Positions 1,261 to 20,852 of a DNA stretch of 20,852 nucleotides are shown in pieces. This DNA is from a virus, in the IMG/VR virus record IMGVR_UViG_3300043398_000128, positions 1-20,852 of that record; one strand, 5' to 3'. Below the pieces are notes generated by a model. The model was not told where the DNA came from. It worked only from the letters and a program-made list of their open reading frames with translations, and ran no database searches. The translations under genes and the position numbers were made by a program. How positions within the stretch are numbered: the stretch's first letter is position 1; each line of letters starts with the position of its first letter.

Positions 1261-1409
1261 AACCACCCCCAAGCCGTCACGATGATGATGGAGAACGCCA
1301 GTGCAACCACGCCCAGGGCAAGTGCGACTTCGGGCCAGATAGGGGGCTCGTCGGGGTCGTCCCAAAATTGGCCTGGGATTTCAATTTCGTCGTGGTTGTC
1401 GCGGTTCAT
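1257..1409 (-). CDS. Small single-pass membrane protein, 50 aa
   Basis: A 50-codon frame starts at ATG 1407-1409, overlapping the stop of the primase-helicase gene as ATGA. The first 28 residues are strongly acidic and soluble. Residues 30-48 form one hydrophobic segment (VALALGVVALAFSIIIVTA) that ends almost at the C-terminus, as in a tail-anchored protein. The ribosome site is weak (AGAAAG), which fits coupled translation behind the primase. It might be a small inner-membrane effector, but nothing in the sequence tells what it does. Confidence 0.65.
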   Translation of the reverse strand: MNRDNHDEIEIPGQFWDDPDEPPIWPEVALALGVVALAFSIIIVTAWGWL

Positions 1410-3835
1410 ACAGTCGCTGCTTTCTTGGTGGGTTTCTTTGTTGCGGTCGCTGCGGTGCTTTGTTTGGCAGCAGGCGCAGGGGCAAAGTGCATGCTGGTGT
1501 ACGCAGAGAACTGGTTGACGTCTTTCCATGTGACCTTGATGCCGCGTACGCTTTTGCTGCCCACCCACACAACGTCCAGATGGATACGGTGGTGTTTGAG
1601 CAGGGCAGTGAACTTGTTAGGTGACTGGGGCACGCCACCGATGGTGAAGTCGAACAATGTGCGTAGTTCTTCGCGGGTGATGTTGCATTGACCGTTAGGT
1701 GCAGTGCGCAGCATCAGGGCTTTGAGCAGCTCGGTGTAGTCCGTCACCTTGTTCATCTGCAGTGTGTTGCGTTCGTGCGACTTGTCTGTGGGCAGTTGTT
1801 CCAGGAAGAACTCGAATGAGCCTTCGAGCAGCGCGCTGCCTACGGTGTCGATAGAGGACTCGCTGATCGAGATCATCGTGTCACGGTCGTCGCTGTGGAT
1901 CACTTGGCCAGCCTTGTCGAAGTCGACAGGCATGTTGGCCAGGTAGTCGTAGAACGTCTGCAGCTCTTTGTCGATCAAGGCCAGTTCGGCGTCGGTAATG
2001 ATCAGCTTGTTGGGCTGGTACTTGCCGACGTTGAAGCGACGGTCTTCTTTGTCGATAGAGATGGGATCACTCATGTTGGACATGAAGATCCAGTTGGTGT
2101 GGTTGCGTACCTCTGTCGCGTTGGCGTACATGGCACGGATGGCGACTGTGGACTCTGTGATGAAGTTCTTGAGCTTGGCCATGACGCCACGCTCGTTCTG
2201 CAGTGCTTTGGTTTGCACCTCGTCAACAAACACCAGGAAGCTGCCTTCCATGAAGTGGTTGTATTTCTCGTTGAGCTCCTCCATGCGGCGTGTAGCGGTG
2301 TGAGCGCCGAACAACGGTCGCAGGATTTTGCTGGTGAGGATGCCTTTGCCGGTGCCGTGTGTGCCGTGCAGCACCCATGCGGTGCGAGTGCGGTCACGGG
2401 TTTGAACTACGGCGCCGAGCCAGTTGATGAAGTGCACCAAGATGTCCGGGTCGTTGCCTAAAGCGTTGTCAATGACTTTGAAGATGGTCTTTGGTACGGC
2501 CTTGGGCATCTTGGTGCCGACATTCAACATGTACTGCGTGGGCTGGAACTTGTTGACGATGCGGTTGCTGGGGTCAACGCGCACGGTGTCGTTGGGATCA
2601 AAGGTCAGATCCCACTCAGGGACGAAATCACCCATGGGTACGCCATATTGCTTGGCAAAGTGGCGCAGCTGTGTTTCGTTCTTGGCAGGGACGATGTCGA
2701 GTACGTCGCTGTTCTGGTCATAGGTTCCGCGCCAGTAGACGCCGGTTTGACGATCGCAGAAAGCGAGATACAACAGGCCGCTGGAGCTCGTTCGTGTGGA
2801 TGAACCACTCCCTGTTAGTTGTTGCCAGTAATCGGGCAGCAGTTCCTTGGTCAGGTAGGACGGCTCGCCCTTGAAGTTGTGGATGTAGTCCGGGTTGTCT
2901 TCCGGGTGGTAGTAGGCCCATGAGTCTCCGCCATTGAGATTGAAGTAGACAAAGCCACGCTCGACTTTGACATCGGTAACGATGCACTCGTCTGGTTTGA
3001 GCATGACCTCAGTTGAACCGACCATCTTGGTCAGGTGCTTGCGTTTGGGTAAACCGGTTTCTTCGCGCAGCTCATCGACACGCTTGTTGGTGAGCTCTTT
3101 GTTTTTGGTGGTGGTGTTGACTATGCCGTTGAGGCTGAGTTTGTTTGTGAGTTTTTTGACCAGCTGAATACGGGGCTGTTTGCCCATCGGGTCTTTGAGT
3201 CCTTTCAGGGTGGGTGGTGCGATGTAGATGAGCTTGTCGTTCTGACAGGCGCTGATGTCCAGAGGCCACGAGATGGAGTTGCCTGTCTTGGTCAGTCCCA
3301 TGCTGCCGCGAAGAATTGGAACCTCGTGGTTTTTCTGAATCAACCACTGCTTGAGCAACGGTGCTGCGTAGGGCTTGTCGAGCAGCATGAAGATGTGAGC
3401 GCGGATCTTCTTGTCGCTGATCCCATAAGACGCAGACCATTGAATGATGTAGCTGATGTCTTGCAGGCCGAGTTCTTGCAAGAACAGATCAATGGTCAGA
3501 GGCAGTTGTTGTGTGGCACCTGACGGAGCCAGCATATCGATCGTGTCAGGCAGACCGTCGAGGTCAAGCACGATCCATTCGGTCACTGCGTTGGTGTCGG
3601 TGCTGCCTGCACGTGACTCGCGCACAAGCGGACGAGCGATGCTGCCCTTGAGCAAACAGTGGCCTTGTGCTGCATGCTGTTTGATCAGTGATTCAAACTG
3701 CTGCAGTGACGTGCACTGCTCAGCAATTGATGTGAACTCCCACGTCATGGGGTAGGGTGTCTTCACCACACCAGAAGATGTCTTGGTGTACGACTTGGTC
3801 AGTTGCTCAGGTGCCTGCAGAAATTCAAGTTGCAT
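1406..3835 (-). CDS. Primase-helicase: AEP/PrimPol-like N-terminus plus D5/SF3-type helicase
   Basis: This 809-residue protein probably primes and unwinds the phage DNA at the replication fork. The C-terminal part has an SF3/D5-type ATPase core: Walker A GTHGTGKG (about residues 491-498), Walker B FLVFVDE (533-539), a sensor-like SNMSDP (586-591) and an EDRRF arginine-finger motif (597-601). The N-terminal part shows a DLDG acidic pair (91-94), an RAHIF motif (145-149) and a later WPLD. These resemble the catalytic motifs of archaeo-eukaryotic primases, as in NrS-1-like phage primase-polymerases, but that assignment is weaker. A TTG at 3850 would add five residues. I prefer ATG 3835 because GAAAG lies 8 bases upstream. 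The gene is first in its polycistron and follows the AT-rich putative origin. Confidence 0.9.
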   Translation of the reverse strand: MQLEFLQAPEQLTKSYTKTSSGVVKTPYPMTWEFTSIAEQCTSLQQFESLIKQHAAQGHCLLKGSIARPLVRESRAGSTDTNAVTEWIVLDLDGLPDTIDMLAPSGATQQLPLTIDLFLQELGLQDISYIIQWSASYGISDKKIRAHIFMLLDKPYAAPLLKQWLIQKNHEVPILRGSMGLTKTGNSISWPLDISACQNDKLIYIAPPTLKGLKDPMGKQPRIQLVKKLTNKLSLNGIVNTTTKNKELTNKRVDELREETGLPKRKHLTKMVGSTEVMLKPDECIVTDVKVERGFVYFNLNGGDSWAYYHPEDNPDYIHNFKGEPSYLTKELLPDYWQQLTGSGSSTRTSSSGLLYLAFCDRQTGVYWRGTYDQNSDVLDIVPAKNETQLRHFAKQYGVPMGDFVPEWDLTFDPNDTVRVDPSNRIVNKFQPTQYMLNVGTKMPKAVPKTIFKVIDNALGNDPDILVHFINWLGAVVQTRDRTRTAWVLHGTHGTGKGILTSKILRPLFGAHTATRRMEELNEKYNHFMEGSFLVFVDEVQTKALQNERGVMAKLKNFITESTVAIRAMYANATEVRNHTNWIFMSNMSDPISIDKEDRRFNVGKYQPNKLIITDAELALIDKELQTFYDYLANMPVDFDKAGQVIHSDDRDTMISISESSIDTVGSALLEGSFEFFLEQLPTDKSHERNTLQMNKVTDYTELLKALMLRTAPNGQCNITREELRTLFDFTIGGVPQSPNKFTALLKHHRIHLDVVWVGSKSVRGIKVTWKDVNQFSAYTSMHFAPAPAAKQSTAATATKKPTKKAATV

Positions 3836-4061
3836 GTCAGTGTCTTTCAAAGATGAACGAGGTCACAGGGTGCGTATCCTACCTCTATTTACTTATTTTC
3901 TTCTCTTTTTATACCTTACATTCTTACATTCTTACAGTAATAAAGTTTAAATTGAAATAAAAGAAGAGAAGAAGTAATAAGTATAGTAGTTGTATAAAGA
4001 GAAGTTAGAAGTCCGGTAAGGACGTAAGTTCGACAGGTCTCCCATAAGGTCGTCAAACGAT
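3836..4061. other. AT-rich intergenic region: candidate replication origin and leftward promoter
   Basis: This gene-free stretch is sharply richer in A and T than its surroundings, especially 3886-4010. It holds 8-bp direct repeats (CTTACATT at 3915-3922 and 3923-3930, and a partial copy at 3931-3936) flanked by a long imperfect inverted repeat (3891-3912 and 3957-3982). On the - strand there are two -10-like hexamers: TATACT at 3980-3985 and TATAAA at 3908-3913, neither with a good -35. The upstream operon appears to end at 4062-4099, so the primase gene needs a promoter here. Origin function is inferred from AT-richness, iteron-like repeats and the adjacent primase-helicase. Confidence 0.45.
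3891..3982. repeat. Imperfect inverted repeat flanking short direct repeats
   Basis: The left arm, 3891-3912 (ACTTATTTTCTTCTCTTTTT then AT), pairs with the right arm, 3957-3982, over about 22 bp with two small bulges. The 44 bases between them contain the CTTACATT repeats at 3915-3936. The arms are polypyrimidine on one strand and polypurine on the other. This would make a cruciform or an AT-rich unwinding element. Confidence 0.6.
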
Positions 4062-6276: not shown

Positions 6277-6395
6277 GTGTGTTCTCCTGGAACTGAGGTT
6301 TGAATGAATGAGCGAAATGCTCAAACAAACCAGAAGACATGCCGAGCTTGCTCGGCGTAAGGTAAGAACGAGACGGTGTGGCGCAGGGAGAAGGG

Positions 6396-6463
6396 ACTCC
6401 TACCCTCGTCGGAGAAACCGAATCCGAAGTGGGGTGGTGCTTCGGATGGAGGGGGTAGGGAGT
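6396..6463. other. Nested stem-loop in the divergent region
   Basis: The outer arms ACTCCTACCCTC (6396-6407) and GAGGGGGTAGGGAGT (6449-6463) pair with small bulges. Inside them, ATCCGAAG (6422-6429) and CTTCGGAT (6440-6447) form a perfect 8-bp stem with a 10-base loop. It could act as a transcript structure in either direction or as a protein-binding site. No T tract follows closely on either side. Confidence 0.5.
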
Positions 6464-6490
6464 GTCTACGCGGCGGTGTTTCTAAAAAAT

Positions 6491-6518
6491 TTTGCAAAAA
6501 ATTTCTTCGCGCTAAAAT
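6491..6518 (+). promoter_or_regulatory. Candidate rightward promoter for the packaging genes
   Basis: TTTGCA (6491-6496) or TTGCAA (6492-6497) is spaced 15-16 bases from TAAAAT (6513-6518), the best sigma70-like pair before the small terminase start at 6550. The spacing is shorter than ideal, and the -35 overlaps an A/T-rich near-palindrome that could be an operator. This is a weak prediction from consensus matching alone. Confidence 0.35.
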
Positions 6519-6549
6519 CCCCGTACATCGTTCACAGATAAAAGAAGCC

Positions 6550-7152
6550 ATGCCAGCAGGGCAACCCATCACCCGGACACCGAAGCGAACAAAAGCCAAG
6601 CCCGAAGGTCGTGGCACCGCCGTGCGCAAGTCACCCGACACCTCGACCATGGCTGCTGCGGCGTCTGTCAGCCCTGACAAGCCGCTCACTGAGAAGCAGC
6701 GTCTGTTTGCCAAGCACTACGCCGCGGGTGACTCAATCCCGAACGCGATGGCACGGGCCGGTTACTCCACCGCGCAGTACAGCCTGGGTTACCGGATGAT
6801 CAAGATGCCGAACGTGATCCGTGTGATCGACGAAGAACGGCGTTTGTTCGAGCAGCAGAACGAGATGACCCGGCGCAAGGTCATGGACATGCTGCTGGAG
6901 AGCTATGACTTTGCCAAGCTGGCTGCGGAACCCGCGTCGATGGTCTCTGCTGCCCGGGAGATCGGTCGGATGTGCGGTTACTACGAGCCTAGGAAGGTCC
7001 AGGTGGACGTGAATGTGCAGGGTTCGATCGCAATGGGCCGTATGAATGCACTCTCAGACGCGGATTTGCTGAAAATCATCGAGTCTGGGGCAGCGCCAGC
7101 CCTCCTGGAAGGCCCAGAAACGGCCGTAGGGGACGATTTTGACGAAGAGTAA
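6550..7152 (+). CDS. terS: Terminase small subunit
   Basis: This 200-residue protein likely recognises the packaging site on phage DNA and hands it to the large terminase. After a basic, disordered N-terminus, LTEKQRLFAKHY (about residues 44-55) followed by an AMARAGYST helix matches the helix-turn-helix start of Terminase_2-type small subunits. The central helices (PNVIRVIDEERRLFEQQ) and an acidic C-terminus fit the usual oligomerisation and TerL-contact regions. ATG 6550 has only a weak AGAAG site; extension to 6376 would run through the regulatory stem-loops. The end overlaps the TerL start by 14 bases, so the two are translationally coupled. Confidence 0.85.
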   Translation: MPAGQPITRTPKRTKAKPEGRGTAVRKSPDTSTMAAAASVSPDKPLTEKQRLFAKHYAAGDSIPNAMARAGYSTAQYSLGYRMIKMPNVIRVIDEERRLFEQQNEMTRRKVMDMLLESYDFAKLAAEPASMVSAAREIGRMCGYYEPRKVQVDVNVQGSIAMGRMNALSDADLLKIIESGAAPALLEGPETAVGDDFDEE

Positions 7153-8833
7153 GGGCAAAGCAGCCCCGTCGCCTAAAAACGCCCAAAAAGCACCCCCTAC
7201 TCAACCCCCTACTCAACCCCCTGCTCAACCCCCTGCACCCCAACTTAACCCCCTCGCGCTGGCCCAGAAGGAGCTGGCCGAGCGGGTCCTGGCCAAACGT
7301 CGCCTGATTCCGTTCACTCAGCGCATCAACCCGCGCTACGACGCGGGTTGGGTGCACCGTGACATTGCTCGTCGGCTGGAGAAGTTCAGCGACGACGTGG
7401 CCAAAGGGCTCTCGCCCCGCCTCATGATCCTGATGCCACCGCGTCATGGCAAAAGTGAGCTGGCCAGCCGGATGTTCCCGGCCTGGCACCTGGGGCGCAA
7501 CCCTGATCACGAGATGATCGCGTGCTCGTACAACGTGTCGCTCGCTATGTCCTTCAGCCGCAAGGTGAAGGAGGTGTTCAACGACCCGAGCTACCAGAGT
7601 GTGTTCGAGACGCGGCTGCACCCGGACTTTCAGGCCAATGAGGAGTGGGGTATTCAGGGCACGCGAGGTGGCTACGTTGCCGCGGGTGTGGGCGGTGGTA
7701 TCACGGGTAAGGGCGCGCACGTCCTGTTGATCGATGACCCTATCAAAAACGCCGAGGAGGCCGACAGTGCTGAAACACGTGAAAAGCTCTGGGATTGGTA
7801 CGGATCGACTGCTTACACGCGTCTTGCTCCTGGTGGCGGGGTGCTGGTCATTCAGACGTGGTGGCACGACGACGACCTTGCTGGACGTTTACAGGTCGCC
7901 ATGGCCACTGACGACGAGGCCGATCAGTTCGAGCTGGTGAAGTACCCGGCGATTGCCGAGCACGATGAGTTTTTGAACCTGGAGACGGACCTTATTGAGT
8001 ACGACGTGGCGCAGGTGCCTGCCGACACCGCGCACGGCATTGAGTTCGAGCACAACACCACACCCTACCGGTTTATTCGCCCCAAAGGCGCGCCGCTGCA
8101 CCCGGAGCGCTACGACCTGATCAAGTTGAACCGGATCAAGAAGACGATTCCGAATCGTTTCTGGGCTGCGCTGTACCAACAGAACCCGGTGCCGGACGAT
8201 GGTGCGTATTTCACGAAGGACCAGTTCCGTCGTCGCCCGTTGCCTAGGCTGTCCGAGAGCAATGTGTTCGTTGCCTGCGACTTTGCGATCAGCGAGAAGA
8301 AGCAGAACGACTACACCGTGATCGCCGTGGGGCTGCAGGACAGTGAGGACGTGCTGCACGTGGCGGAAATTGTGCGTTTCAAGTCGGGGGACGGCATGTT
8401 CATCGTTGAATCGATACTCAATACGTGCAAGCGGTGGCATAATCCCAACCTGGTGCTGGGGTTTGAGGATGGGCAGATATTTCGTGCCATTGAAAGCCTC
8501 TTGAAGAAGAGGATGAGGGAGCGGCAGTATTACCCCTCGACCCAGTTACTGAAACCCATTACCGACAAGCTGGCCCGTGCAAGACCTTTGCAAGGGCGGA
8601 TGCAACAGGGGATGGTGAGCTTCGCTGATGGTGCTGAGTGGTTTGACACTGCTCGCACGGAGATGCTTCGGTTCCCGGCCGGTGTGCACGACGATCAAGT
8701 CGACGCGCTGGCCTGGATGGCGACAATGGCGGTGGGTCGAGAGCCCCCGCGCATCAAACAGGCGAAGGCTCTAAAGTCATGGAAAGACAAGCTCAAGGGT
8801 TACAGCGGTTCGGTCAGTCACATGGTGGCGTGA
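7139..8833 (+). CDS. terL: Terminase large subunit (packaging ATPase and nuclease)
   Basis: This 564-residue motor pumps DNA into the prohead and cuts it. The ATPase has Walker A PPRHGKSE (100-107), Walker B VLLIDDP (195-201) and the VIQTWWHDDDLAGR segment (237-250) typical of phage terminases. The RNase H-like nuclease begins near CDFAIS (Asp381), with GFEDG around 441-445 and HDDQVDAL (517-524) supplying further acidic residues. The start is TTG 7139, because AGGGG lies about 7 bases upstream and no ATG precedes the ATPase region. The N-terminal 40 residues are a proline-rich tail built from a 12-bp tandem repeat (7193-7240). Confidence 0.93.
   Translation: MTKSKGKAAPSPKNAQKAPPTQPPTQPPAQPPAPQLNPLALAQKELAERVLAKRRLIPFTQRINPRYDAGWVHRDIARRLEKFSDDVAKGLSPRLMILMPPRHGKSELASRMFPAWHLGRNPDHEMIACSYNVSLAMSFSRKVKEVFNDPSYQSVFETRLHPDFQANEEWGIQGTRGGYVAAGVGGGITGKGAHVLLIDDPIKNAEEADSAETREKLWDWYGSTAYTRLAPGGGVLVIQTWWHDDDLAGRLQVAMATDDEADQFELVKYPAIAEHDEFLNLETDLIEYDVAQVPADTAHGIEFEHNTTPYRFIRPKGAPLHPERYDLIKLNRIKKTIPNRFWAALYQQNPVPDDGAYFTKDQFRRRPLPRLSESNVFVACDFAISEKKQNDYTVIAVGLQDSEDVLHVAEIVRFKSGDGMFIVESILNTCKRWHNPNLVLGFEDGQIFRAIESLLKKRMRERQYYPSTQLLKPITDKLARARPLQGRMQQGMVSFADGAEWFDTARTEMLRFPAGVHDDQVDALAWMATMAVGREPPRIKQAKALKSWKDKLKGYSGSVSHMVA
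7193..7240 (+). repeat. 12-bp tandem repeat encoding the TerL proline-rich tail
   Basis: Four 12-base units starting with CCCCCT follow one another at 7193, 7205, 7217 and 7229. The first two are identical (CCCCCTACTCAA), the third differs by one base and the fourth diverges at its end. Each unit adds four residues (PTQP-like), so gain or loss of a unit keeps the frame. Confidence 0.85.
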
Positions 8834-8852
8834 TGACGCTCGCGAGTAGCAA

Positions 8853-9785
8853 ATGACCTGGCGTACTCTTATCCGCGAAGACTTTAGTACCGATATGGAC
8901 GGGTACTACATGCCTTTCGTTGGGCGGTCGTTCACAGGGAATGCTGGTACTGCGTACTTGTCGGCGACGTACAACTGGGGCGCCACAGGCCCGTACACCC
9001 AATCCCCCAACCCCTACCCAGGGGACACCAACTTCCGGCTCCGCTCCGGTGGGGTGCATGTGTCAGGCGGGGTGCTGCGTGGGCTCCCCGACGAGTATTG
9101 TGTGAAGCACTTTAACCCCGGCGTGTACGGTACGCTGCAGGACCCGATCCTGTCGTTCACGTCCGATACCTACAACCTGACGAAACCGTACGGCTGGGAC
9201 GACAACTACCCATACCCCCCGCCAGTCTTGGTCGGTTTAGGAAAGAACTACCAGTGGGTCTTTGGCTTGGGGGGAGGGGTGTTCATTGGGCAGGGGATGA
9301 GGGTGTCAGCAGAGATCTCGCTATCTGGTCCTGTGTCGGCTTGGCACCGGTCGATCGGGGATGATGGTCGGGTTTCGTTCTACGTTGAAGCGCCGAACGG
9401 GGATTGGGGGTACGGAGCCGTCAGCCCCGACGAGACCTTCTGGGAGTGGGAGTTTGACGGGCAGTATGACTCGGTAGTCGACGCAGGTACAGGCGACATC
9501 ACCACTGCGGTGACTATAGAAGTATTCCCGGACAGGGCTGTGTTTTTCTTCGGTGTCTCCAAGGAGGCGAGCTTTGGGGGTCGTGTGTTCCCGCCGGACT
9601 CACAGGTCTGGCTGACCTGTGCGCCGCCCGCCACACACGACCGCATGGGTACTTGGGGGAACTCCATCAGTATCGACTACAACAACATCATCGACCCCCG
9701 CGTCGGTGGGATCAGCCTCTTTGAGATCCAGGCGTTTGAGAGTACCGGTTTTTGGCGCTCTCTGAAGAATACAACCGAGGTGTAA
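8853..9785 (+). CDS. Unknown beta-rich protein between TerL and portal, 310 aa
   Basis: This gene fills the space between TerL (stop 8833) and portal (start 9788), where many phages have nothing. The product is rich in Gly, Tyr, Phe and Asp, has few Lys, and alternates short hydrophobic strands (RVSFYVEAP, TIEVFPDRAVFFFGV). That pattern suggests a beta-sandwich, possibly of the concanavalin/LamG-like lectin type. No signal peptide, membrane segment or catalytic motif was recognised. ATG 8853 is the only early start, because a TAG precedes it in frame at 8847. The ribosome site is weak, so coupling to TerL is likely. It may be a virion surface, decoration or receptor-binding protein; this is inference from composition and position. 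Confidence 0.8.
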   Translation: MTWRTLIREDFSTDMDGYYMPFVGRSFTGNAGTAYLSATYNWGATGPYTQSPNPYPGDTNFRLRSGGVHVSGGVLRGLPDEYCVKHFNPGVYGTLQDPILSFTSDTYNLTKPYGWDDNYPYPPPVLVGLGKNYQWVFGLGGGVFIGQGMRVSAEISLSGPVSAWHRSIGDDGRVSFYVEAPNGDWGYGAVSPDETFWEWEFDGQYDSVVDAGTGDITTAVTIEVFPDRAVFFFGVSKEASFGGRVFPPDSQVWLTCAPPATHDRMGTWGNSISIDYNNIIDPRVGGISLFEIQAFESTGFWRSLKNTTEV

Positions 9786-9787
9786 CC

Positions 9788-11938
9788 ATGCCCATCGACA
9801 CTCAAAAAGCCACCAAACAGTGGACTCGCTACGCCTGGGCCCGTGACAACGGGCATGCCCAGTACGTCCAGAATGCGGAGAAGTGTGACGCTTTTTTCCG
9901 CGGAGACCAGTGGGACCGTGCCGACAAGATTGCATTGGAGCGGGTGCGCCGCCCGGCGATGACGATCAACAAGATCCTGAGCACGATCTCCAACGTGATG
10001 GGGGAGCAGATCTTCAACCGGGCTGAGATCAGCTTCCGGCCGAGGAACGGCGCCCCTGTGGAGACGGCGGAGATCCTGTCGAAGGTCTTCAAGCAGATCA
10101 GCGACAACAACCAGCTGGACTGGAAGCGCAGTGATATGTTCGCCGACGGTGTGATCACCAGCCGTGGCTTCTTGGACGTGCGGCTGGACCACAACGACAG
10201 CGTCGAGGGTGAGGTCCGCATTGAGAACCTGAACCCGAAGAACGTCATCATCGACCCGGACGGCGAGGAGTACGACCCGGACACCTGGGGTGAGGTGTTC
10301 ACGACGAAATGGGTCACGGCCGACGACATTGCTGTGTTGTACAACGAGGGGGATGCAGAGCTGCTGCGCAACCGCGAGCAGAGCTACTTCCCGTATGGCT
10401 ATGACAGCATCCAGGCCTACCGCGACCGTTTTGGTGACCGGTTCAACCCGATGTACACAGGCGACTACGACAACAGCAATGTGATGCGCAACATCCGGCT
10501 GATTGAGCGCCAGTACCGTGAGCTGAACCGCCAGAAGCACTTTGTGTCGTCCCAGACGGGGGACATGCGCGCTATACCGGAAGACTTTGACCGCAACCGG
10601 ATTGCCTGGTATGTGGAGAAGTTTGGCTTCCAGGTCACGACGAAGCTGGTGCGTCGCATCAAGTGGACTGCGATTGCGGATAACGTGGTGCTGCACGATG
10701 ACTGGAGCCCGTACAAGCACTTTACGGTGGTGCCGTACTTCCCGCACTTCCGCCGCGGTACGACGATCGGCCTGGTGGAGAACCTGACCGGCCCGCAAGA
10801 GGTGCTGAACAAGGTGACGAGCCAGGAGCTGCACATCGTCAACACCACAGCCAACAGCGGCTGGAAGGTGAAGGCCGGTGCGCTGGTGAACATGACGGTC
10901 GAGGAGCTGGAAGAGAAGGGCGCCCAGACCGGGCTGGTGGTGGAGGTCACGGAGACTGACGCCATCGAGAAGATCCAGCCCAACCAGGTGCCGCAGGGCC
11001 TGGACCGGGTGAGCTACAAGGCCGAGGAGTCGATCAAGACGATCTCCGGCGTCAGCGACAGCATGCAGGGTTTTGACCGTGAGGACGTGGCTGCCAAGGC
11101 GATTGAGAAGAAGCGCCAGGCGGGCAGCACGAACCTGGCCAAGCCGCTGGACAACTTGACCCGCAGTGACTACATCCTGGCGCGCAATGTGTTGGATCTG
11201 GTGCAGACGTTCTACACAGAGGAACGGATTCTGACCATCACCCACGATCAGGTGACCGGCGAGACCGAGAACTTCACCATCAACCAGGTGACACCTGAAG
11301 GCACCGTGGTGAACGACCTGACCATCGGCGAGTACGGCGTGGTGGTGACGAGCGTGCCGGTGCGCGAGACCTTGGAAGACAGCCAGTTCGAGCAGGCCGT
11401 GGCCTTGCGCGAGATGGGCGTCCAGATCCCCGACGCGGTGCTGATTGACGCCAGCCGTCTGATGAACAAGAAGGACATTATTCGCCAGCTCCAGGGCGAC
11501 CAGGACAGCCCAGAGGCTCAGGCGCAGAAGGAACTGCAGCGCCGCGCCCAGGAGGCGGAAGTGGCCAAGGTGGAGAGCGAGGTGGCCCAGAAGGGCGCCG
11601 ATGCCCAGCTCAAGCAGGCCAAGGTCCAGGAGACCATGGTCAAGACCCAGATCGCTGCCCAAGGCGAGCCAGACGACGGCTCGGGGCAGGCGAAGATGGC
11701 CGAAGCCGAAGTCAAGGCAGGCCAGGCAGAACATGAAGCGTCCCTGAAGGAACGTGAGTTCGAGCGCGATACACAGCTCAAGATGATGGAGTTCGGCCTC
11801 AAGCGCGAACAACAGAACAATGAGCTGCGCCTCAAGTCGCACCAGATGGCCGCGGACCGAGCAGACCGCCGCGCACAGATGACAGCCCAGGCAGCGGCGG
11901 CTGCACAACAACCGCAACCAGCGAAAGGCAACACATGA
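9788..11938 (+). CDS. Portal protein, P22-like
   Basis: This 716-residue protein would form the 12-fold ring at the capsid vertex through which TerL drives DNA. The N-terminal RRPAMTINKILSTISNVMGEQ block (about residues 57-77), the FRPRNG turn and the NLNPKNVIIDPD segment (about 150-161) are characteristic of the P22-type portal family. From about residue 577 to the end it is a long, charged, Ala/Gln-rich helical region like the P22 barrel. ATG 9788 has GAGGTG 6 bases upstream; the frame to 9752 overlaps the preceding gene. Its last codons overlap the scaffold start as ATGA, so portal and scaffold production are coupled. Confidence 0.9.
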   Translation: MPIDTQKATKQWTRYAWARDNGHAQYVQNAEKCDAFFRGDQWDRADKIALERVRRPAMTINKILSTISNVMGEQIFNRAEISFRPRNGAPVETAEILSKVFKQISDNNQLDWKRSDMFADGVITSRGFLDVRLDHNDSVEGEVRIENLNPKNVIIDPDGEEYDPDTWGEVFTTKWVTADDIAVLYNEGDAELLRNREQSYFPYGYDSIQAYRDRFGDRFNPMYTGDYDNSNVMRNIRLIERQYRELNRQKHFVSSQTGDMRAIPEDFDRNRIAWYVEKFGFQVTTKLVRRIKWTAIADNVVLHDDWSPYKHFTVVPYFPHFRRGTTIGLVENLTGPQEVLNKVTSQELHIVNTTANSGWKVKAGALVNMTVEELEEKGAQTGLVVEVTETDAIEKIQPNQVPQGLDRVSYKAEESIKTISGVSDSMQGFDREDVAAKAIEKKRQAGSTNLAKPLDNLTRSDYILARNVLDLVQTFYTEERILTITHDQVTGETENFTINQVTPEGTVVNDLTIGEYGVVVTSVPVRETLEDSQFEQAVALREMGVQIPDAVLIDASRLMNKKDIIRQLQGDQDSPEAQAQKELQRRAQEAEVAKVESEVAQKGADAQLKQAKVQETMVKTQIAAQGEPDDGSGQAKMAEAEVKAGQAEHEASLKEREFERDTQLKMMEFGLKREQQNNELRLKSHQMAADRADRRAQMTAQAAAAAQQPQPAKGNT

Positions 11939-12942
11939 ACCCACTTTTGAAAGCTCTGATGCACCGTCTGCACGCCCCGATGGACGGGGAAGGCAACGAC
12001 CTGGGAGGCGCCGTAGACCGCGGCGACGACTTCACCCCCACAGATGACGAGCCGGACACCCCCGCAGCCAAGCCTGAGCCGAAAGTGCCCGAGGCCACTG
12101 ACGAGGACGACGTCGACCCTGACGACCCGGACGCCGGGGAGGGGGACGAGCCCAAGGCGGACGACAAGCCCAAGAAAAAGGACCAGCGCATCCCGCTGAG
12201 CCGCCACAAGGACCTGCTGGAGAAAGAGCGCGCAAAACGCGCTGAGCTGGAGCAAAAGCTGCAGCAGTTCCAGCGTGGCGGTGAGGTGGCTGAGCTCAAC
12301 GAGAACATCACCAAAGCCGAGGAGAAGATCATCGGTCTGGAGAAGGACTACGCAAAGCTGCTGGCCGACGGCGAGGTGGAAAAAGCCTCAGCGCTGATGA
12401 GCCAAATTCGCAACCTGGAGCGCCAGGTGGTGGAGTCCAAGAGCGACATGAAGATTGCCGCAGCCGAGGCCCGGGCAACTGAGCGCGCTCGCTACAACAT
12501 TGCCCTGGAGCGCATTGAGCAGGCCTACCCTGAACTGAACCCGGAGTCCGACGACTTTGACGAAGAGATGATGCAGGACATCGTCGACCTGAAGGCATCG
12601 TACGAAAGCCGCCGCGGTCTGACCCCCACAGATGCCATGCAGAAGGCCGTGGAGAAGATGCTCGGCACCCGCACCAAGGCGCAGCAGAAGGCCATTGACA
12701 CCACGCCCCGTGTGAGCGACAAGGACGTGGCGAAAGAGGTCAAGGAAGAGCGCAAGAAAGAGGCGGTCAAAAAGACCCTGGACGCCGTGGGCAAGCAGCC
12801 GCCCAATGCGTCGAAAGTAGGGTTGGACAGCGACAAGGCCGGTGGTGCTCTGACGGCCAAAGACGTCATGAAACTGAGTCAGGACGACTTCGGCAAACTC
12901 AGCGACGAGATGCTGGCCCGTATGCGTGGCGACGAGCTGTGA
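11935..12942 (+). CDS. Scaffolding-like protein, 335 aa
   Basis: This gene sits between portal and capsid, the usual place for a scaffold. The N-terminal part (about residues 20-80) is very acidic and disordered (DEPDTP, EDDVDPDDPDAGEGD). A long coiled coil follows (about 85-180, KERAKRAELEQKLQQF). The C-terminal third is basic and helical. This architecture is typical of scaffolds that guide capsid assembly and then leave, though sequence alone does not prove the role. The start ATG 11935 overlaps the portal stop as ATGA. A strong terminator-like structure lies after the stop, so scaffold and capsid may be transcribed at different levels. Confidence 0.78.
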   Translation: MNPLLKALMHRLHAPMDGEGNDLGGAVDRGDDFTPTDDEPDTPAAKPEPKVPEATDEDDVDPDDPDAGEGDEPKADDKPKKKDQRIPLSRHKDLLEKERAKRAELEQKLQQFQRGGEVAELNENITKAEEKIIGLEKDYAKLLADGEVEKASALMSQIRNLERQVVESKSDMKIAAAEARATERARYNIALERIEQAYPELNPESDDFDEEMMQDIVDLKASYESRRGLTPTDAMQKAVEKMLGTRTKAQQKAIDTTPRVSDKDVAKEVKEERKKEAVKKTLDAVGKQPPNASKVGLDSDKAGGALTAKDVMKLSQDDFGKLSDEMLARMRGDEL

Positions 12943-13110: not shown

Positions 13111-13132
13111 AGCGCGGATTTCTCCGCTTTTT
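13111..13132 (+). terminator. Second terminator-like hairpin in the capsid leader
   Basis: GCGGA-TTTC-TCCGC (13114-13127) is a 5-bp stem followed by TTTTT (13128-13132). It lies 28 bases before the capsid start codon, so it would stop or pause transcripts entering the gene. A stem of only five pairs may be a weak terminator or an attenuator. Confidence 0.4.
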
Positions 13133-13160
13133 GATCGCCTATCGTCTAAGGAGTGCCACC

Positions 13161-14270
13161 ATGGCATTGACCAACTTTGCCGCGTTGACCGCGGAACAAA
13201 AAACCGTTTGGGGTATGGACCTGTGGAAGCAGGCCCGCAACAACAGCTTTATCAACCGCTTCTTGGGCAAAGGCCCCAACAGCCTGATTCAGCACATCAC
13301 TGAGCTGAAGAAGAATGAGAAGGGCGCCCGCGCCGTGATCACTCTGTTGGCTGACTTGCAGGGCGACGGCGTTGCCGGCGACCGCACGCTGGAAGGCAAC
13401 GAAGAAGCCCTCCAGACCTTCGACCAGGTGATCCGCATTGACCAGTTGCGTCATGCCAACCGTCACGAAGGCCGCATGGCTGACCAGAAATCGATCGTCG
13501 AGTTCCGTGGCAACAGCCGCGACCTGCTGGCCTACTGGCTGGCCGACCGTATCGACCAGTTGGCGTTCTTGACCATGTCTGGCGTGTCCTATGCCAAGAA
13601 GAACAACGGCGCGAACCGCGTCGGTTCTGACCTGACGAACCTGGAGTTCGCCGCTGACGTGTCTGCCCCGACCGCCGCCCGCCGCTTGCGTTGGGACGCC
13701 ACCAACGGGCTGATCGCCGGTGCCGCTACCAGCGACATCGCCGCTGAGGACACCCTGACCTGGGCGACCTTCGTGCAGCTCAAGGCCTTTGCCAAAGAGC
13801 GCTACATCCGTGGCGTGAAAGAGGCTGGCGGCGAGGAGACCTTCCACGCGTTCGTTACGCCCCAGGCCATGGCCAAGCTGAAGATGGACCAGAACTACAT
13901 GCTCAACCTGCGCCACGCAGTCGAGCGTGACAAGTCGAACCCATTGTTCACCGGCTCGACCGTGAAGATCGACGGCATCTACCTGCACGAGTTCCGCCAC
14001 GTGTACAACACCTCGGGTGCCGCTTCCGGCTCCAAGTGGGGTGCAGGCGGTGCTGTGGACGGCGTGCAGATGCTGTTCTGCGGCGCTCAGGCACTGGGTA
14101 TGGCCGACATCGGCGCCCCTGAGTGGGAAGAGAAAGAGTTCGACTACGGCAACCAGCAGGGTATCAGCGTCGGCAAGATCGCTGGCTTCCTGAAGCCGAA
14201 GTTCTCGAACATCTACGAGGCCGGCGCCGTTGAAGACTTCGGCGTGATCTCCTGCTACGCAGCTCAGTGA
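13161..14270 (+). CDS. Major capsid protein, N4-gp56-like family
   Basis: This 369-residue protein should form the icosahedral shell. The N-terminus (TNFAALTAEQKTVWGMDLWK, then NNSFINRFLG), the VITLLADLQGDGVAGDRTLEGNEEAL region cut at several points, and the later LRHAVERDKSNPLFTGS block fit the N4-gp56 / DUF4043 family of HK97-fold capsid proteins, judged from memory. ATG 13161 has AAGGAG about 7 bases upstream; the TTG frame start at 13131 has none. Its long structured leader sets it apart from its neighbours. A GNRA-loop hairpin follows the stop. High expression is expected from the strong ribosome site. Confidence 0.88.
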   Translation: MALTNFAALTAEQKTVWGMDLWKQARNNSFINRFLGKGPNSLIQHITELKKNEKGARAVITLLADLQGDGVAGDRTLEGNEEALQTFDQVIRIDQLRHANRHEGRMADQKSIVEFRGNSRDLLAYWLADRIDQLAFLTMSGVSYAKKNNGANRVGSDLTNLEFAADVSAPTAARRLRWDATNGLIAGAATSDIAAEDTLTWATFVQLKAFAKERYIRGVKEAGGEETFHAFVTPQAMAKLKMDQNYMLNLRHAVERDKSNPLFTGSTVKIDGIYLHEFRHVYNTSGAASGSKWGAGGAVDGVQMLFCGAQALGMADIGAPEWEEKEFDYGNQQGISVGKIAGFLKPKFSNIYEAGAVEDFGVISCYAAQ

Positions 14271-14326: not shown

Positions 14327-14728
14327 ATGGCCAACACCACCCTGAAACCCGCGAACGGTCGTCAGTACCCTTTGTTCGCTGAAGTGACGATCAACGTCGC
14401 CAACCTCAACGAGTCCACCGTGCCGGTGGCAGCCATCAAGCTGCCCACCAACGCCATGGTGATCGGCGGCCGCGTGGTTGTGGACACCGCCTTTGATGCG
14501 GCCACTGCCACTCTGGACGTGGGTGACTCGACCGTAGCAAACCGCTACAAAAACGACGTGAACGTCGCCGCCCTCGGCGCCACTGAGCTGGTCCCCACCG
14601 GCTACGTGTCCGATGGCGCTGACCTGATCGTGACCCCTGTGTTTGCAGATGCCGTGACCGTTGGCAGCCTGCGCGTGCAGGTGGAATACGTGATCGCCGG
14701 CCGTGCCCACGAGGTGCAGCCTAACTGA
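14327..14728 (+). CDS. Putative capsid accessory or decoration protein, 133 aa
   Basis: The start ATG 14327 has TAGGAG 7 bases upstream. The product is small, nearly all beta by pattern, and rich in Val, Ala, Thr and Asn (VAAIKLPTNAMVIGGRVVVD, then TATLDVGDS and LRVQVEYVIAG). It sits directly after the major capsid gene, where head decoration or cement proteins are often encoded. That position plus a beta-sandwich pattern is the whole basis for the role. No signal peptide or metal-binding motif is seen. It is bracketed by hairpins on both sides (14279-14298 and 14733-14754), so its transcript may be separately stabilised. Confidence 0.7.
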   Translation: MANTTLKPANGRQYPLFAEVTINVANLNESTVPVAAIKLPTNAMVIGGRVVVDTAFDAATATLDVGDSTVANRYKNDVNVAALGATELVPTGYVSDGADLIVTPVFADAVTVGSLRVQVEYVIAGRAHEVQPN

Positions 14729-14774: not shown

Positions 14775-15143
14775 ATGAAGTTCATCCTGAATCGTGACCG
14801 CGTAGTGGCATCGGCCTTCGGGCATTCCGTATCGTTCAAAAAAGGCGAACCCACCCACGTACCTCCTGAGATGTACGCCGAGGTGATTGCCGCAGGCGCT
14901 GTGCCAGAGGAAGAGCTGACAGAGCCCGTGGTGAAGAAGCCTGACTACCCAACCGCCCCTGCTGAGCGCGAGGCCGCACTTTTTGAGGCCTTTGAGGCGA
15001 TCGTGCTGCGCAACGACAGCTCGGATTTCACCGCCGGTGGCAACCCCAAGGACTCCGTGGTGGAGAAAGCTGTGGGCTTCAAGGTGAGCGCGAAAGAGCG
15101 CGAAGCCGCATGGAACAAATTCAAGCTCGGTAAGGACGAGTGA
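14775..15143 (+). CDS. Small head-region protein of unknown role, 122 aa
   Basis: ATG 14775 follows AAGGACAG. The first 45 residues are a compact beta/alpha segment (MKFILNRDRVVASAFGHSVS, then FKKGEPTHVPPEMYAEVIAAGA), a style often seen in short phage head-region proteins next to capsid genes. An acidic linker (PEEELTEP) and helical C-terminal half follow. No family assignment is possible from sight. The stop TGA 15141-15143 lies two bases before the preferred start of the next gene, which it would overlap if that gene used GTG 15140. Confidence 0.75.
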   Translation: MKFILNRDRVVASAFGHSVSFKKGEPTHVPPEMYAEVIAAGAVPEEELTEPVVKKPDYPTAPAEREAALFEAFEAIVLRNDSSDFTAGGNPKDSVVEKAVGFKVSAKEREAAWNKFKLGKDE

Positions 15144-15145
15144 GC

Positions 15146-15802
15146 ATGAACTCGACCGAGCTCATCGAGACCTTCCGGGACGAGATGAACGATCTCGCGG
15201 AGCCCTACCTGTGGTCGGACTCCCTGTTGTATCGCTATCTTGACGACGCGCAAAAGATGTTTTGCCGTCTGACCGAGGGTATCGAGGACTCGTCAACCGT
15301 TGCCGTCACCCGCCTGGACATCCAGGCCGGTGTCGAATGGTACGCGACCGACAAGCGGATCTTGAAGGTACGCAAGGTATTCGACACCGCGACAGGCAGA
15401 GAACTGCCGCTCGTGAACATGGAAAAAGCAGGTGCGGAGGGCGTCAGGTTTGACGGCCGCACCGGCCCACTCAAGGCCTTGGTGGCTGGGCTGGAAAAGA
15501 ACAAACTGCGCGCCTGGCCTAAGCCTTCAGCCGATGCAACCGTCGACTTGTCGGTGTTCCGCCTGCCGTTGGTGACGATCACCGATGACGGCGATCAGGA
15601 ACTCGAGGTCGACGAGCAGCACCATCTGAGCCTGCTGATGTGGGTAAAGCACAGGGCTTACGGCAAAGAGGACGCTGAAACGTTCAACCGCCGTAAGTCG
15701 GATGAGTACGAGCAGCGGTTCTATGCCTACTGCTCAGAAGCGCGCAAAGAGCAAGAGCGTGCCCGCCGCAGCGTGGGTACGGTGGTGTACGGCGGTATTT
15801 GA
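15146..15802 (+). CDS. Putative head-tail adaptor protein, 218 aa
   Basis: The N-terminal motif LWSDSLLYRYLDDAQKMFCR (about residues 23-42) followed by a DKRILKVRKVFD segment resembles phage proteins filed as DUF6682 / head-tail adaptor-like, as I recall them. Proteins of this size, placed after the capsid, commonly seal the portal to the tail. The C-terminus is a long charged helix (SEARKEQERARRS). ATG 15146 is preferred to GTG 15140 because AAGGA (15132-15136) is nine bases from ATG but only three from GTG. The adaptor role is inferred from size, motif and gene order, not proven. Confidence 0.72.
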   Translation: MNSTELIETFRDEMNDLAEPYLWSDSLLYRYLDDAQKMFCRLTEGIEDSSTVAVTRLDIQAGVEWYATDKRILKVRKVFDTATGRELPLVNMEKAGAEGVRFDGRTGPLKALVAGLEKNKLRAWPKPSADATVDLSVFRLPLVTITDDGDQELEVDEQHHLSLLMWVKHRAYGKEDAETFNRRKSDEYEQRFYAYCSEARKEQERARRSVGTVVYGGI

Positions 15803-15866: not shown

Positions 15867-17609
15867 ATGGCATTAGACGCAACAAAATGGCAGGTGAAGT
15901 CCGATAAGGGCATTCGATACATCGGGGGTGCACACGGCACCGCCACGGCAAACTACGTGACGGTTCTTGAACTGCACCGATGGCTGCAAGACCTCGCTGA
16001 CGACGCGAGCATGGCCAACGATGACTTCATGGACATCACCAACGCGAACCCGTCGGACAAGAAGTTCGACACCATCATCACGTTGGTGAACGGGTACACC
16101 TTGGACGATGCCCACACCACGCCTGCCAGTGAGTACATCTACGGCGGCTCGATCATTCAGGGCTCGGGCGGCACTGAAGTGATTTATGACGGCGTTTCGG
16201 TGGTGGCGGCTCGCGGTGTTGTGGTGAACGTGGTTCAGAACAACACGGTGCTGACCAACAAGTTCTGGAACAACACCCCGAACGGCGAAGCCTTTGCGGG
16301 TATCAACCCTGCACCTGCTTCGGGTATTGCCATGCAGTTCATGGTGAAGGTCAAGACCGCTGGTGCGTTCATTGACAACGCTGCGCTGCTGTTCACAACC
16401 CGCGAATGGGGCAAAACCTTCAGCGAGTTCCGTATCCCCGCCACTGGCCGGGGTGTGAACGTGGTGCCGCTGACTTATGCGGATGACTTGAACAACACCA
16501 CGGGTTCGGGCACGGTTGCCACATGGACGGCAATCACGAACACCACAGCAGGGTTCAAGCAGATTGACGTGAACCAGGATTCGTCGGTCGAGAATTACTA
16601 CTCGGAATGGAACCGGGACACGTACTCGATCAACCAGTTCTACGAGCGCATGAAGTACATCACCCGCAACGGTGAGACCGGTACGCTGTACGGCTTGGCG
16701 GGTGAGAAGTTCCGGGGCATTACCCACGTTATTGACATTGGCACACCCACAGGCGGCACGTTTGCCACTGGCGGCGCAACGCCTTTGTCCTGGGGTTCTG
16801 GTGCTACGGCAGGCACGGCGCAGGTGCTTGCCAACGACACGACCAATCACATTCTGTATGTGCAGCTGTTGACGGGTGTTGTGCCTGGGAACAGCGTGAC
16901 TGTGACGCAGGGCGCGGTCAGTGCCACCACGGCAGCGTCGAACGCTGTGAGCGAGAAAACCGTTTCTGCCCCGTTCTGCGGTGCCTCTACGGGTTCTTCG
17001 CTGGTGGGTGCCTACGGCTTTACGCTGGAATACGCTGACTTGGCGGTGAACGACAAGATCACGGCCTTTGACGGTGTGACCCGCCAACCGCCGAACAACG
17101 TGGTGTTCACAGTGAACGGTGTGTTGAGTGGCTACCGTGTGCTGGTGGGGCCGGAGGATGGCTCTGGCGGCTTGCTCAAGAACCAGTTGACATTGGCCGG
17201 GGCGTTGACAGGTGCGGCGGTGACTTCGGTGGTGGTGAACGAGGCGATACCCGCCAACACACCCAGCAGCGGCACGATTCGCATTCAGCGGGCAGATGGC
17301 AGCTACACGCGCCACCCTTACTCTGCGGTGAACACGGGCACCAAGACGTTCACGATCACCAGCCACAACTTCAGCACGAACAACGCGGGTGCGAACGCCA
17401 ACACGTTTATCAGCTACATCGACGGCTCGGCTTCGGGCACTTCGATCAGCTTTAACACGGTGCAGACTGCCACGCAGACTTTGTTCATTGAAGCGCGTTT
17501 TGGTGGTACGGGGCCGAACTACACGGACTCGATCAAGCCGTCAAAGACCACGGGCTCGCTGGGCTCGACGGGCGGCAGCGCCACGATTTCGCCGGTGTCT
17601 GACGCTTAA
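15867..17609 (+). CDS. Large virion-type structural protein, 580 aa, unknown
   Basis: ATG 15867 has GAGGAG 8 bases upstream. The N-terminal 300 residues contain a LELHRWLQDLADDA helix (about 33-46) and an EWGKTFSEFRIPATGRG block (about 186-202), then YSINQFYERMKYITR (about 258-272). The second half is Gly/Thr/Ser/Asn-rich and beta by pattern, with short strand repeats (VLVGPEDGSG, TIRIQRADGS). It looks like a large virion or tail-associated protein rather than an enzyme. No known family was recognised, and no signal peptide or membrane segment is present. It is followed closely by the giant protein gene, probably in the same transcript. Confidence 0.8.
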   Translation: MALDATKWQVKSDKGIRYIGGAHGTATANYVTVLELHRWLQDLADDASMANDDFMDITNANPSDKKFDTIITLVNGYTLDDAHTTPASEYIYGGSIIQGSGGTEVIYDGVSVVAARGVVVNVVQNNTVLTNKFWNNTPNGEAFAGINPAPASGIAMQFMVKVKTAGAFIDNAALLFTTREWGKTFSEFRIPATGRGVNVVPLTYADDLNNTTGSGTVATWTAITNTTAGFKQIDVNQDSSVENYYSEWNRDTYSINQFYERMKYITRNGETGTLYGLAGEKFRGITHVIDIGTPTGGTFATGGATPLSWGSGATAGTAQVLANDTTNHILYVQLLTGVVPGNSVTVTQGAVSATTAASNAVSEKTVSAPFCGASTGSSLVGAYGFTLEYADLAVNDKITAFDGVTRQPPNNVVFTVNGVLSGYRVLVGPEDGSGGLLKNQLTLAGALTGAAVTSVVVNEAIPANTPSSGTIRIQRADGSYTRHPYSAVNTGTKTFTITSHNFSTNNAGANANTFISYIDGSASGTSISFNTVQTATQTLFIEARFGGTGPNYTDSIKPSKTTGSLGSTGGSATISPVSDA

Positions 17610-20600: not shown

Positions 20601-20852
20601 TGCCCCCATGGCCCAGGTGGTGAGCATCACCAATGCCACGACCGTGGTTGTCAGCATTGCCAACACAGGCACGGTGTCTGGGGTGTTGGTGTTCAACCAC
20701 CTACCCAGCGAAACGGTCGCCAGTTCAGCGGCTGGGTTTCCACTCAAGATCAAAGTGGCGGCCAACCAAACCAACGGCAACAACTCGATTCAGGCTGTTT
20801 ATTTTTTCACGAACGCCAACGCCACCGACCGCGCCGCCACCTACCCGCTTGA
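17623..20852 (+). CDS. Giant repeat-containing virion protein, at least 1076 aa (3' end outside window)
   Basis: One frame stays open from TTG 17623 to the window edge, 1076 codons and two bases, with no stop seen in my reading. TTG is chosen because GAGGG (17611-17615) lies 7 bases upstream; ATG 17638 is the alternative. The product is Gly/Thr/Ala-rich and beta-rich. A domain of about 70 residues with an HG(L/F)xxGxxV core recurs at about residues 244, 635 and 811; the last two share W(T/S)R(A/S)TTT and a following LNAG. A central segment (about 355-615), with Asn-Cys and Gly turns, could be a beta-helix. Near residue 980 an EAGDYVYGTGIAP motif typical of phage fibre and baseplate add-ons appears. 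It is probably a tail fibre or other adsorption structure. Confidence 0.82.
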   Translation, partial: MTTYTMTGSGTLRDIGNAAIFGSATARTGGDIFNVNGFGLTIDQDTRYGLSGTTSTSLGNLTISGTAGGSITIDGRYVRLIPFNAGSGTITAGSLITLGSATAKVIGLYSSLTSAPALTGVSSGYLKVTEWNGVPFPTSGTYTQAGFTFTLPGFGGIDSYPGWIEVVGDEASTLTAYRLGTVSILGAWYDFLGTTTTGTRTSTYQIPTNGSLTYVAGVWVQSASATITGAAPAAGSITFTAAGHGFFVGQEVSITGASPSGYNLSDVVITAKTPNTFTVTAADPGTWTSGGSASVYEFYPNAGSRPALVANIQTDEVRGKWCWITTAGLVYFGSDGTNSTGGYIVPAGRKLRVPNVFLQNCTTAARTANVLPNATLATRYDFTTTGGGALVMDKVSCAWYMSFAQAYSVSCKYVSTFESLTISETASPLTLWDVGVGQAGTANTQIALNLSLMFAGGTIRNCTMSRIAQAASGAYIESWTDCTGFTVTNLKSRSLTKAANATTGTATLTRVIGCTFEDCMAGGGRYALVGCDSTVFTGTVYYDNIASTTAATIPMYVWDLITAPSYNMKFDGLSFGGLPLVQPYSGVLNLGVAGCNNIKLRSLGTAAAPLDMGGPMVDATWTRATTTMTVTKVAHGLKAGDTIAVNMCSDVAPKAVTTTTATLWSVLAAPTADTFTATVLNAGQTAGQNLRYYPTMAGVLVGFATGAAANGVYIQRCYVPHLRTGVLASSADNSSKNIYLEDVWGTEWGVQANPLLNCFVRQLQSTPLLTFQTSTYGTHFIDFYTTAQPASTSGVSWSRSTTTCTVTSSNHGLRVGDQVLVTATSDAAAVVLGVKTLTQITAVASPVNVGNTFQFTCLNAGAASGTLTFTPINGRVAVQMNEATAETSNQVALSGGAGFTSTGALALLATGRTAEFTIDEPIRGHGSFPNVQPVINGGTANANDVTYSLDAGASWHNLFYNRTGGGGASASTNVTMTSTVGVEAGDYVYGTGIAPMAQVVSITNATTVVVSIANTGTVSGVLVFNHLPSETVASSAAGFPLKIKVAANQTNGNNSIQAVYFFTNANATDRAATYPL

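What the first reader, a model, noticed from the sequence alone, without database searches (positions are those of the whole stretch)
8853..9785. Unrecognised beta-rich gene inserted between large terminase and portal
TerL and portal are usually neighbours. Here a 310-residue Gly/Tyr-rich beta-sandwich-like protein sits between them with tight spacing on both sides. The pattern suggests a lectin-like or virion surface protein, which would be an unusual place to carry a host- or glycan-binding function.
Basis: inference. Interest (0 to 1): 0.5.

Follow-up and report, generated by a model that had tools for sequence, protein, structure and literature searches.

The report
Orphan gene in a phage swap-slot
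A real but unrecognised phage gene sits at a spot where related phages repeatedly exchange accessory genes, most often one for an iron-handling DNA-protection-like protein; its protein looks rich in beta-strands, but what it does is not yet known.

Summary
The ORF is real: 310 codons, 19 bp after TerL, 2 bp before a P22-like portal, with coding-type codon use. Its Gly/Tyr/Trp/Phe content is extreme (2 of 610 long + strand ORFs as high, itself included). No search run found a homologue (phages, viral contigs, genome contigs, plasmids, Pfam, PHROGs, NCBIfam, 50 related records).

The premise that TerL and portal are neighbours fails for this group. In 110 non-redundant TerL-portal junctions the gap runs from 1 to 3148 bp; 21 are under 100 bp. 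The usual tenant (60 of 110) is a Dps/ferritin-like protein. The window falls in a supported 18-row portal clade whose other 17 members carry that gene; the window does not. So this looks like a clean gene replacement in a high-turnover accessory slot. Genes between TerL and portal are in print for other phages.

Beta-rich is supported by composition only. Both AlphaFold runs failed (pLDDT 32 and 36), so beta-sandwich, lectin and virion roles are untested. My best guess is an accessory beta-rich binding protein made with the virion genes, at modest confidence; a non-virion accessory protein is the main rival.

The parts
8853..9785 (+). Orphan 310-aa gene (P0001), Gly/Tyr/Trp/Phe-rich, no recognised family; no signal peptide or membrane segment seen by eye
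7139..8833 (+). Terminase large subunit; left border of the slot; its end (SHMVA-stop) fits the pattern [SG][HF]MxA-stop seen in 75 of 110 junctions
9788..11938 (+). P22-like portal protein; right border of the slot
8834..8852 (.). 19-bp spacer after TerL; no clear Shine-Dalgarno sequence before ATG 8853
   Evidence: sequence
9786..9787 (.). 2-bp spacer before the portal; a GAGG lies just before the portal start inside the end of the orphan gene
   Evidence: sequence
6376..7152 (+). Terminase small subunit (context)
11935..12942 (+). Lys/Glu-rich 335-aa gene between portal and capsid, probable scaffold by position and composition (inference)
13131..14270 (+). Major capsid protein
15140..15802 (+). 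SU10-type adaptor (head-tail) protein

Best explanation
The gene is an accessory gene carried in a variable slot between terL and the portal gene of a short-tailed phage with a P22-like portal, distantly related to KPP25. It most likely replaced the Dps-like gene that the nearest relatives carry there (supported by the junction survey and the portal tree). It lies on the same strand and almost touches the portal gene, so it is probably transcribed and translated with the packaging and head genes (inferred from spacing; no sigma-70-like promoter was found in the region). Its product has no signal peptide or membrane segment that I can see and is probably a beta-rich protein. Most likely it joins the virion as a non-essential fibre- or decoration-type binding protein (inferred from late-operon position, composition like the window's own tail-region genes, and other beta-leaning orphans or a fibre-type protein in the slots of some relatives). 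Glycan binding in particular is a guess.
For: Coding. Slot: 110 non-redundant junctions, gap 1-3148 bp, 60 with a Dps-like gene, 21 under 100 bp, 8 with only unassigned proteins of which one or more has at least 150 aa (window included). Turnover: 24 changes of slot state (Dps-like / short gap / other) on the 107-row portal tree; the window lies in a set of 18 rows (local support 96) of which the other 17 carry the Dps-like gene. No window ORF matches the Dps-like profile. In that clade the TerL ends fit [SGT][HF]MxA-stop in 18 of 18 and the portal start is kept, so the swap is clean. Beta lean: mean P(alpha) 0.93 and P(beta) 1.02, like downstream g9 and g10 (0.96/1.03, 0.96/1.05) and unlike TerL, portal and capsid and the Dps-like proteins (1.07/0.99; P(beta) above P(alpha) in 0 of 60). 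Precedent for fibre-type cargo: L117 slot protein matches phrog_12296 'tail fiber protein' 7.9e-13. No promoter-like site in 8600-10000.
Against: The commonest slot tenants are not obvious surface proteins (Dps-like 60 of 110, HNH-type 3 of 110), so the place says little about a virion role. No homologue with a known role; no fold (pLDDT 31.9 and 36.4); Foldseek gave no match at E 0.001 or better in any of three searches. No match to any structural PHROG; fibre-specific modules (adaptor-binding or trimerisation) were not tested separately. The start codon has no clear Shine-Dalgarno sequence, so expression level is uncertain.
Confidence: 0.4

Rival explanations
1. Non-virion accessory ('moron'-type) protein: it acts in the infected cell late in infection, as the Dps-like tenant presumably does, for instance as an enzyme or an inhibitor of a host or rival-phage function, and does not enter the particle.
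For: The slot's usual tenants are Dps-like and occasionally HNH-type proteins; the gene is an orphan, restricted and replaceable. No sequence match to any structural PHROG.
Against: Composition is Gly/Tyr-rich and Lys-poor like the downstream tail-region genes of the window; no enzyme family matches and no defence-related family.
Confidence: 0.35
2. Carbohydrate-active or lectin protein of a known fold (concanavalin A / LamG / GH16-like jelly roll or PLL-type beta-propeller) too diverged to be recognised by sequence.
For: By eye the ends look like the first and last strands of jelly-roll lectins (recalled, not tested). Foldseek with the full-length model lists PLL/PHL propeller lectins first (E 0.05 and worse, TM 0.12-0.15).
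Against: The model is unreliable; no match at E 0.001 or better; the fragment model gives a different, mixed list in which PLL/PHL lectins appear only at E 0.5 and worse. No internal repeats: best self-alignment score 38, reached by 19 of 100 shuffles, which speaks against a propeller. No Pfam lectin or glycosidase match at E up to 10 within HMMER's filters.
Confidence: 0.15
3. Head-completion or connector protein that works with the portal, as gpW (recalled) sits between TerL and portal in lambda.
For: Immediate neighbour of the portal gene.
Against: No counterpart in the other 109 non-redundant junctions, whose portals reach about 80% identity, so it is unlikely to be a required connector; the window has its own SU10-type adaptor downstream.
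Confidence: 0.05
4. Not a gene: a chance open frame in GC-rich DNA, or an assembly artefact.
For: No homologue in any search run; no Shine-Dalgarno; synonymous codon score lower than portal or capsid (0.085 against 0.318 and 0.323). A longer spurious frame exists antisense to the portal (755 aa).
Against: Codon use is right in this frame only and z = 8.0 against uniform synonymous choice; 3 of 2000 simulated slots had so long a frame; TerL and portal on both sides are at a like distance from relatives (about 79% for TerL and 79-80% for the portal over the best long pieces).
Confidence: 0.05

Closest known systems
TerL-portal slot with Dps-like gene (PF19174 DUF5856 / phrog_858) in related uncultivated phages
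   Same: Same borders (TerL stop, portal start), same strand, tight packing, same clade
   Different: The window's slot holds an unrelated 310-aa beta-leaning orphan instead
Pseudomonas phage KPP25 (Kochitakasuvirus) and Acidovorax phage AP1
   Same: Among the nearest named isolates by portal (46.6% and 38.4% identity); similar order terS-terL-portal-scaffold region-capsid as annotated
   Different: No gene between TerL and portal: 13-bp gap in KPP25, 4-bp overlap in AP1
Aeromonas phage phiA008
   Same: One unassigned gene (182 aa) between TerL and portal
   Different: Unrelated protein (no match of the orphan)
Insertions between TerL and portal in other phages: SPP1 ORFs 3-5, Microbacterium clusters EC (Quhwah, 17 ORFs) and EF
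   Same: Accessory genes interrupting the packaging/portal module (passages read in PMC6316719 and PMC7302621)
   Different: Other phage groups and other genes; no direct protein comparison made beyond the phage-wide search
L050 slot protein (232 aa, L050:3909-4607)
   Same: Orphan of similar composition, P(beta) above P(alpha), in the same slot; superficially similar ends
   Different: No sequence similarity by hhalign (probability 0.1%); it sits beside, not instead of, the Dps-like gene

Membership tests
Accessory (moron-type) insertion in a structural module | Present in one or few genomes, absent from close relatives at the same site | tested here: met
   In the window only, 1 of 110 non-redundant junctions; no match in 50 related records (no positive control in that call)
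Accessory (moron-type) insertion in a structural module | Strict (original) sense: own promoter and terminator | tested here: inconclusive
   No sigma-70-like promoter in 8600-10000; two terminator-like sites (shuffles give 0.9 on average), one inside the ORF and one on the - strand in the portal gene. Other promoter types are not covered.
Dps-like slot tenant (DUF5856 / phrog_858) | Profile match; H-x11-H-x14-D-x3-E | tested here: not met
   No window ORF matches the profile or the motif
ConA/LamG lectin-like proteins | Profile match to a lectin or LamG family | tested here: not met
   No Pfam hit at E up to 10, within HMMER's filters
ConA/LamG lectin-like proteins | Jelly-roll fold | tested here: inconclusive
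   pLDDT 31.9 and 36.4; Foldseek without significant match
PLL-type beta-propeller lectins | Several sequence repeats (blades) | tested here: not met
   Self-alignment no better than shuffles: 19 of 100 reach it (only alignments across a cut point were scored)
Virion surface / decoration proteins | Present in the particle | not testable with these tools
   Needs purified virions; the window is a virus record of 20,852 bases
Lambda gpW-type connector (recalled) | Conserved, required neighbour of portal | tested here: not met
   No counterpart of the orphan in the other 109 junctions

The most novel reading that the evidence does not exclude
The TerL-portal gap of this phage group is a dedicated swap site in which lineages exchange a DNA/iron-protection protein of Dps type for a surface-binding beta protein, and the window's orphan is the first member of a new phage carbohydrate-binding family placed with the packaging genes.
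Probability: 0.15. Interest if true: 0.5.

Novelty: new member of a known kind. Interest (0 to 1): 0.3.

Why it matters
It turns a single odd gene into a defined place where related phages trade accessory genes inside an otherwise fixed head-assembly module. That makes it a useful site for finding new phage accessory functions by comparing tenants. The orphan itself has no relatives in the searches run and could be a new fold or function. The commonest tenant, a Dps-like protein in the packaging operon, is at least as worth following.

Tried and rejected
Homologue searches with the whole protein and with its two halves or C-terminal part: nothing. The contig scans need exact short peptides, so diverged relatives could be missed. 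phmmer with all filters off against 8445 ORFs of 253 sequences (252 loci plus the window): best foreign hit E = 2.9. Three weak PDB sequence hits (E 0.0013, 0.032, 1.8) cover unrelated stretches of unrelated proteins and were dropped as chance. hhalign of the orphan against 11 other proteins of the slot or of the window (12 rows in all, one being the orphan against itself): none above 0.5% probability. The larger hhalign run timed out without output. Structure: full length and residues 118-300, both too poor to use; three Foldseek searches read only as negative. VIA-align was not used because the models are unreliable. Rfam: no match in the window.

A remnant of the Dps-like gene: weak tblastn pieces (best E 5e-4 against a 1.2-kb stretch, 0.025 against the whole window). 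The two leading places lie in TerL DNA, in a frame other than TerL's and matched by an over-extended ORF of L008, and at 9509-9688 in a frame other than the orphan's (frames checked). Rejected as chance.

Survey limits: 62 of 253 sequences had no TerL or no portal hit and were dropped, among them the phage records AP1 and ctwe8250 (L162, L161), which I read by their annotation. Portal starts were inferred from alignment, so single gaps can be off (KPP25 counts as 64 bp, its annotation says 13). Each scan keeps at most 80 loci, so proportions describe that sample. Three of 110 junctions (L047, L125, L253) are not in the tree, which is a quick FastTree tree with local support only. Labels 'HNH' and small families C, D, E are my own clusters; DUF5856/phrog_858 was checked on one slot protein (L003), the other members by my profile. 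The first survey (86 junctions) was superseded by the second (110).

Papers: passages only were seen of PMC13340246, PMC10269572, PMC3851460, PMC6316719, PMC7302621, PMC8008677 and PMC9509320; others only as listings. No paper in the held library has DUF5856, nor all five terms.

Full report
What is there. The window holds the packaging and head end of a phage with a P22-like portal and a SU10-type adaptor (so probably short-tailed): terS (6376-7152), terL (7139-8833), the 310-aa ORF (8853-9785), the portal (9788-11938), a probable scaffold (11935-12942), the capsid protein (13131-14270), two small genes, the adaptor (15140-15802) and two large Gly-rich genes (15867-17609, 17623 to the end). 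The spacers around the ORF are 19 and 2 bp.

Is it a gene. The ORF scores as coding in its own frame only (0.047 against -0.25 or lower in the five others). Its synonymous codon use, judged against the other window genes with itself left out, is 8.0 standard deviations above uniform choice; terS has 6.1 and TerL 12.4. A stop-free run this long arose in 3 of 2000 simulated slots. The start has no clear Shine-Dalgarno sequence, which is a mark against strong expression.

Is it known. No match in 50,697 phage records, 72,556 plasmids, IMG/VR contigs (whole protein and halves), bacterial and archaeal genome contigs, Pfam, PHROGs, NCBIfam or PADLOC. The contig scans reach close relatives only. It is also absent from 50 related virus records, though that tool warns that an empty answer without a positive control shows little, and from all 253 sequences of the survey by tblastn.

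The slot. I gathered relatives by portal, TerL, capsid and TerS, two by the L050 slot protein and four phage records. Of 253 sequences, the window included, 191 have both TerL and portal; they reduce to 110 non-redundant junctions, two of them from named phages (KPP25, phiA008). Gaps run from 1 to 3148 bp, median 434. 60 of 110 hold a protein of about 118 aa of the family that matches DUF5856 and phrog_858 (matched on one member); 21 have a gap under 100 bp; 15 hold only small unassigned frames or none; 8 (the window included) hold only unassigned proteins of which at least one has 150 aa or more; 6 hold other recurrent small families without the Dps-like gene. 3 carry an HNH-type frame (my label). 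Among isolates by annotation, KPP25 has a 13-bp gap, AP1 a 4-bp overlap, ctwe8250 a 12-bp gap, phiA008 a 182-aa gene.

Replacement. On a FastTree portal tree (107 of the 110; three had under 300 readable portal residues) the window lies in a set of 18 rows with local support 96, and the other 17 carry the Dps-like gene. The window has none. The simplest reading is loss of that gene and gain of the orphan on the window's branch. In those 18 the TerL end reads [SGT][HF]MxA-stop every time, and the portal start is kept (printed for 10), so the exchange left both neighbours intact. Over the whole tree the slot changes state at least 24 times (shuffled mean 42.5, none of 200 as low), so it turns over but is inherited for a while.

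What the protein may be. G+Y+W+F make up 28.4%; 2 of 610 + strand ORFs of 250 aa or more in the set, which includes this ORF, are as high. Chou-Fasman means favour strands (0.93 alpha, 1.02 beta), as in the window's own two downstream large genes, and unlike the 60 Dps-like proteins (1.07, 0.99). That is a crude measure; the small gene g6 (14327-14728) also leans to strands. AlphaFold without relatives gave 12 strands and no helix between residues 125 and 256, but at pLDDT 31.9; residues 118-300 alone gave 36.4. These cannot be used to claim a fold. Foldseek put PLL/PHL propeller lectins first for the full model at E 0.05 and TM 0.12, and a mixed list for the fragment; nothing reached 0.001. 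The lack of internal repeats argues against a propeller.

Mechanism. I commit, at 0.4, to a late, accessory, beta-rich binding protein that joins the particle. For: late position almost fused to the portal gene with no sigma-70-like promoter nearby, composition like tail-region proteins, a fibre-type PHROG match in the slot of L117, and beta-leaning orphans in the slots of L050, L074, L080 and L147. Against: the commonest tenants are not obvious surface proteins, so an intracellular accessory role (0.35) is nearly as likely. Shown: the gene and the variable slot. Well supported: the replacement. Inferred: co-expression, beta structure. Guessed: virion, glycan.

Verdict. An orphan accessory gene in a busy insertion slot: a new member of a known kind, interest 0.3. 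The side finding, that the usual tenant is a Dps-like protein with the ferroxidase spacing (recalled from Dps) in 60 of 60 cases, may be the better lead.

Noticed in passing
TerL-portal slot of relatives, e.g. L012:4569-4934, L007:4556-4924, L151:5656-6009: About 118-aa Dps/ferritin-like protein (DUF5856, phrog_858 'starvation-inducible transcriptional regulator') as usual tenant, 60 of 110 junctions; all 60 have H-x11-H-x14-D-x3-E, the spacing I recall for the Dps ferroxidase site, against 6 of 8377 other ORFs. A profile of 11 of them finds Dps chains in the PDB only weakly (E 0.24 and worse). Dps-like enzymes in other phages are in print (PMC8008677, passages).
   Followed up: partly
L074:2969-4960, L080:2051-4285, L147:2375-4234: Large (619-744 aa) beta-leaning orphan proteins in the same slot; no PHROG match, and no phage match for L080 and L147.
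   Followed up: partly
L117:6821-7078: 85-aa protein matching phrog_12296 'tail fiber protein' (7.9e-13) lies between TerL and the Dps-like gene.
   Followed up: no
window 15867-17609 and 17623-20850: Two large Gly-rich genes after the adaptor, nearly orphan: the first has 2 relatives among the survey ORFs (L197, L205), the second none, but 42% identity over 56% to a hypothetical protein of MW202577. Likely tail or fibre region by position.
   Followed up: partly
window 1406-3850 (-): 814-aa protein with primase-like matches (phrog_24712 1.3e-216, unnamed; DNA primase PHROGs; DUF5906) on the strand opposite to the head genes.
   Followed up: no
L003:4409-5011, L022:4382-5011, L125:7156-7863: HNH-type (my label, no library search) frames between the Dps-like gene and the portal, overlapping the portal start: possible homing endonucleases.
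   Followed up: no
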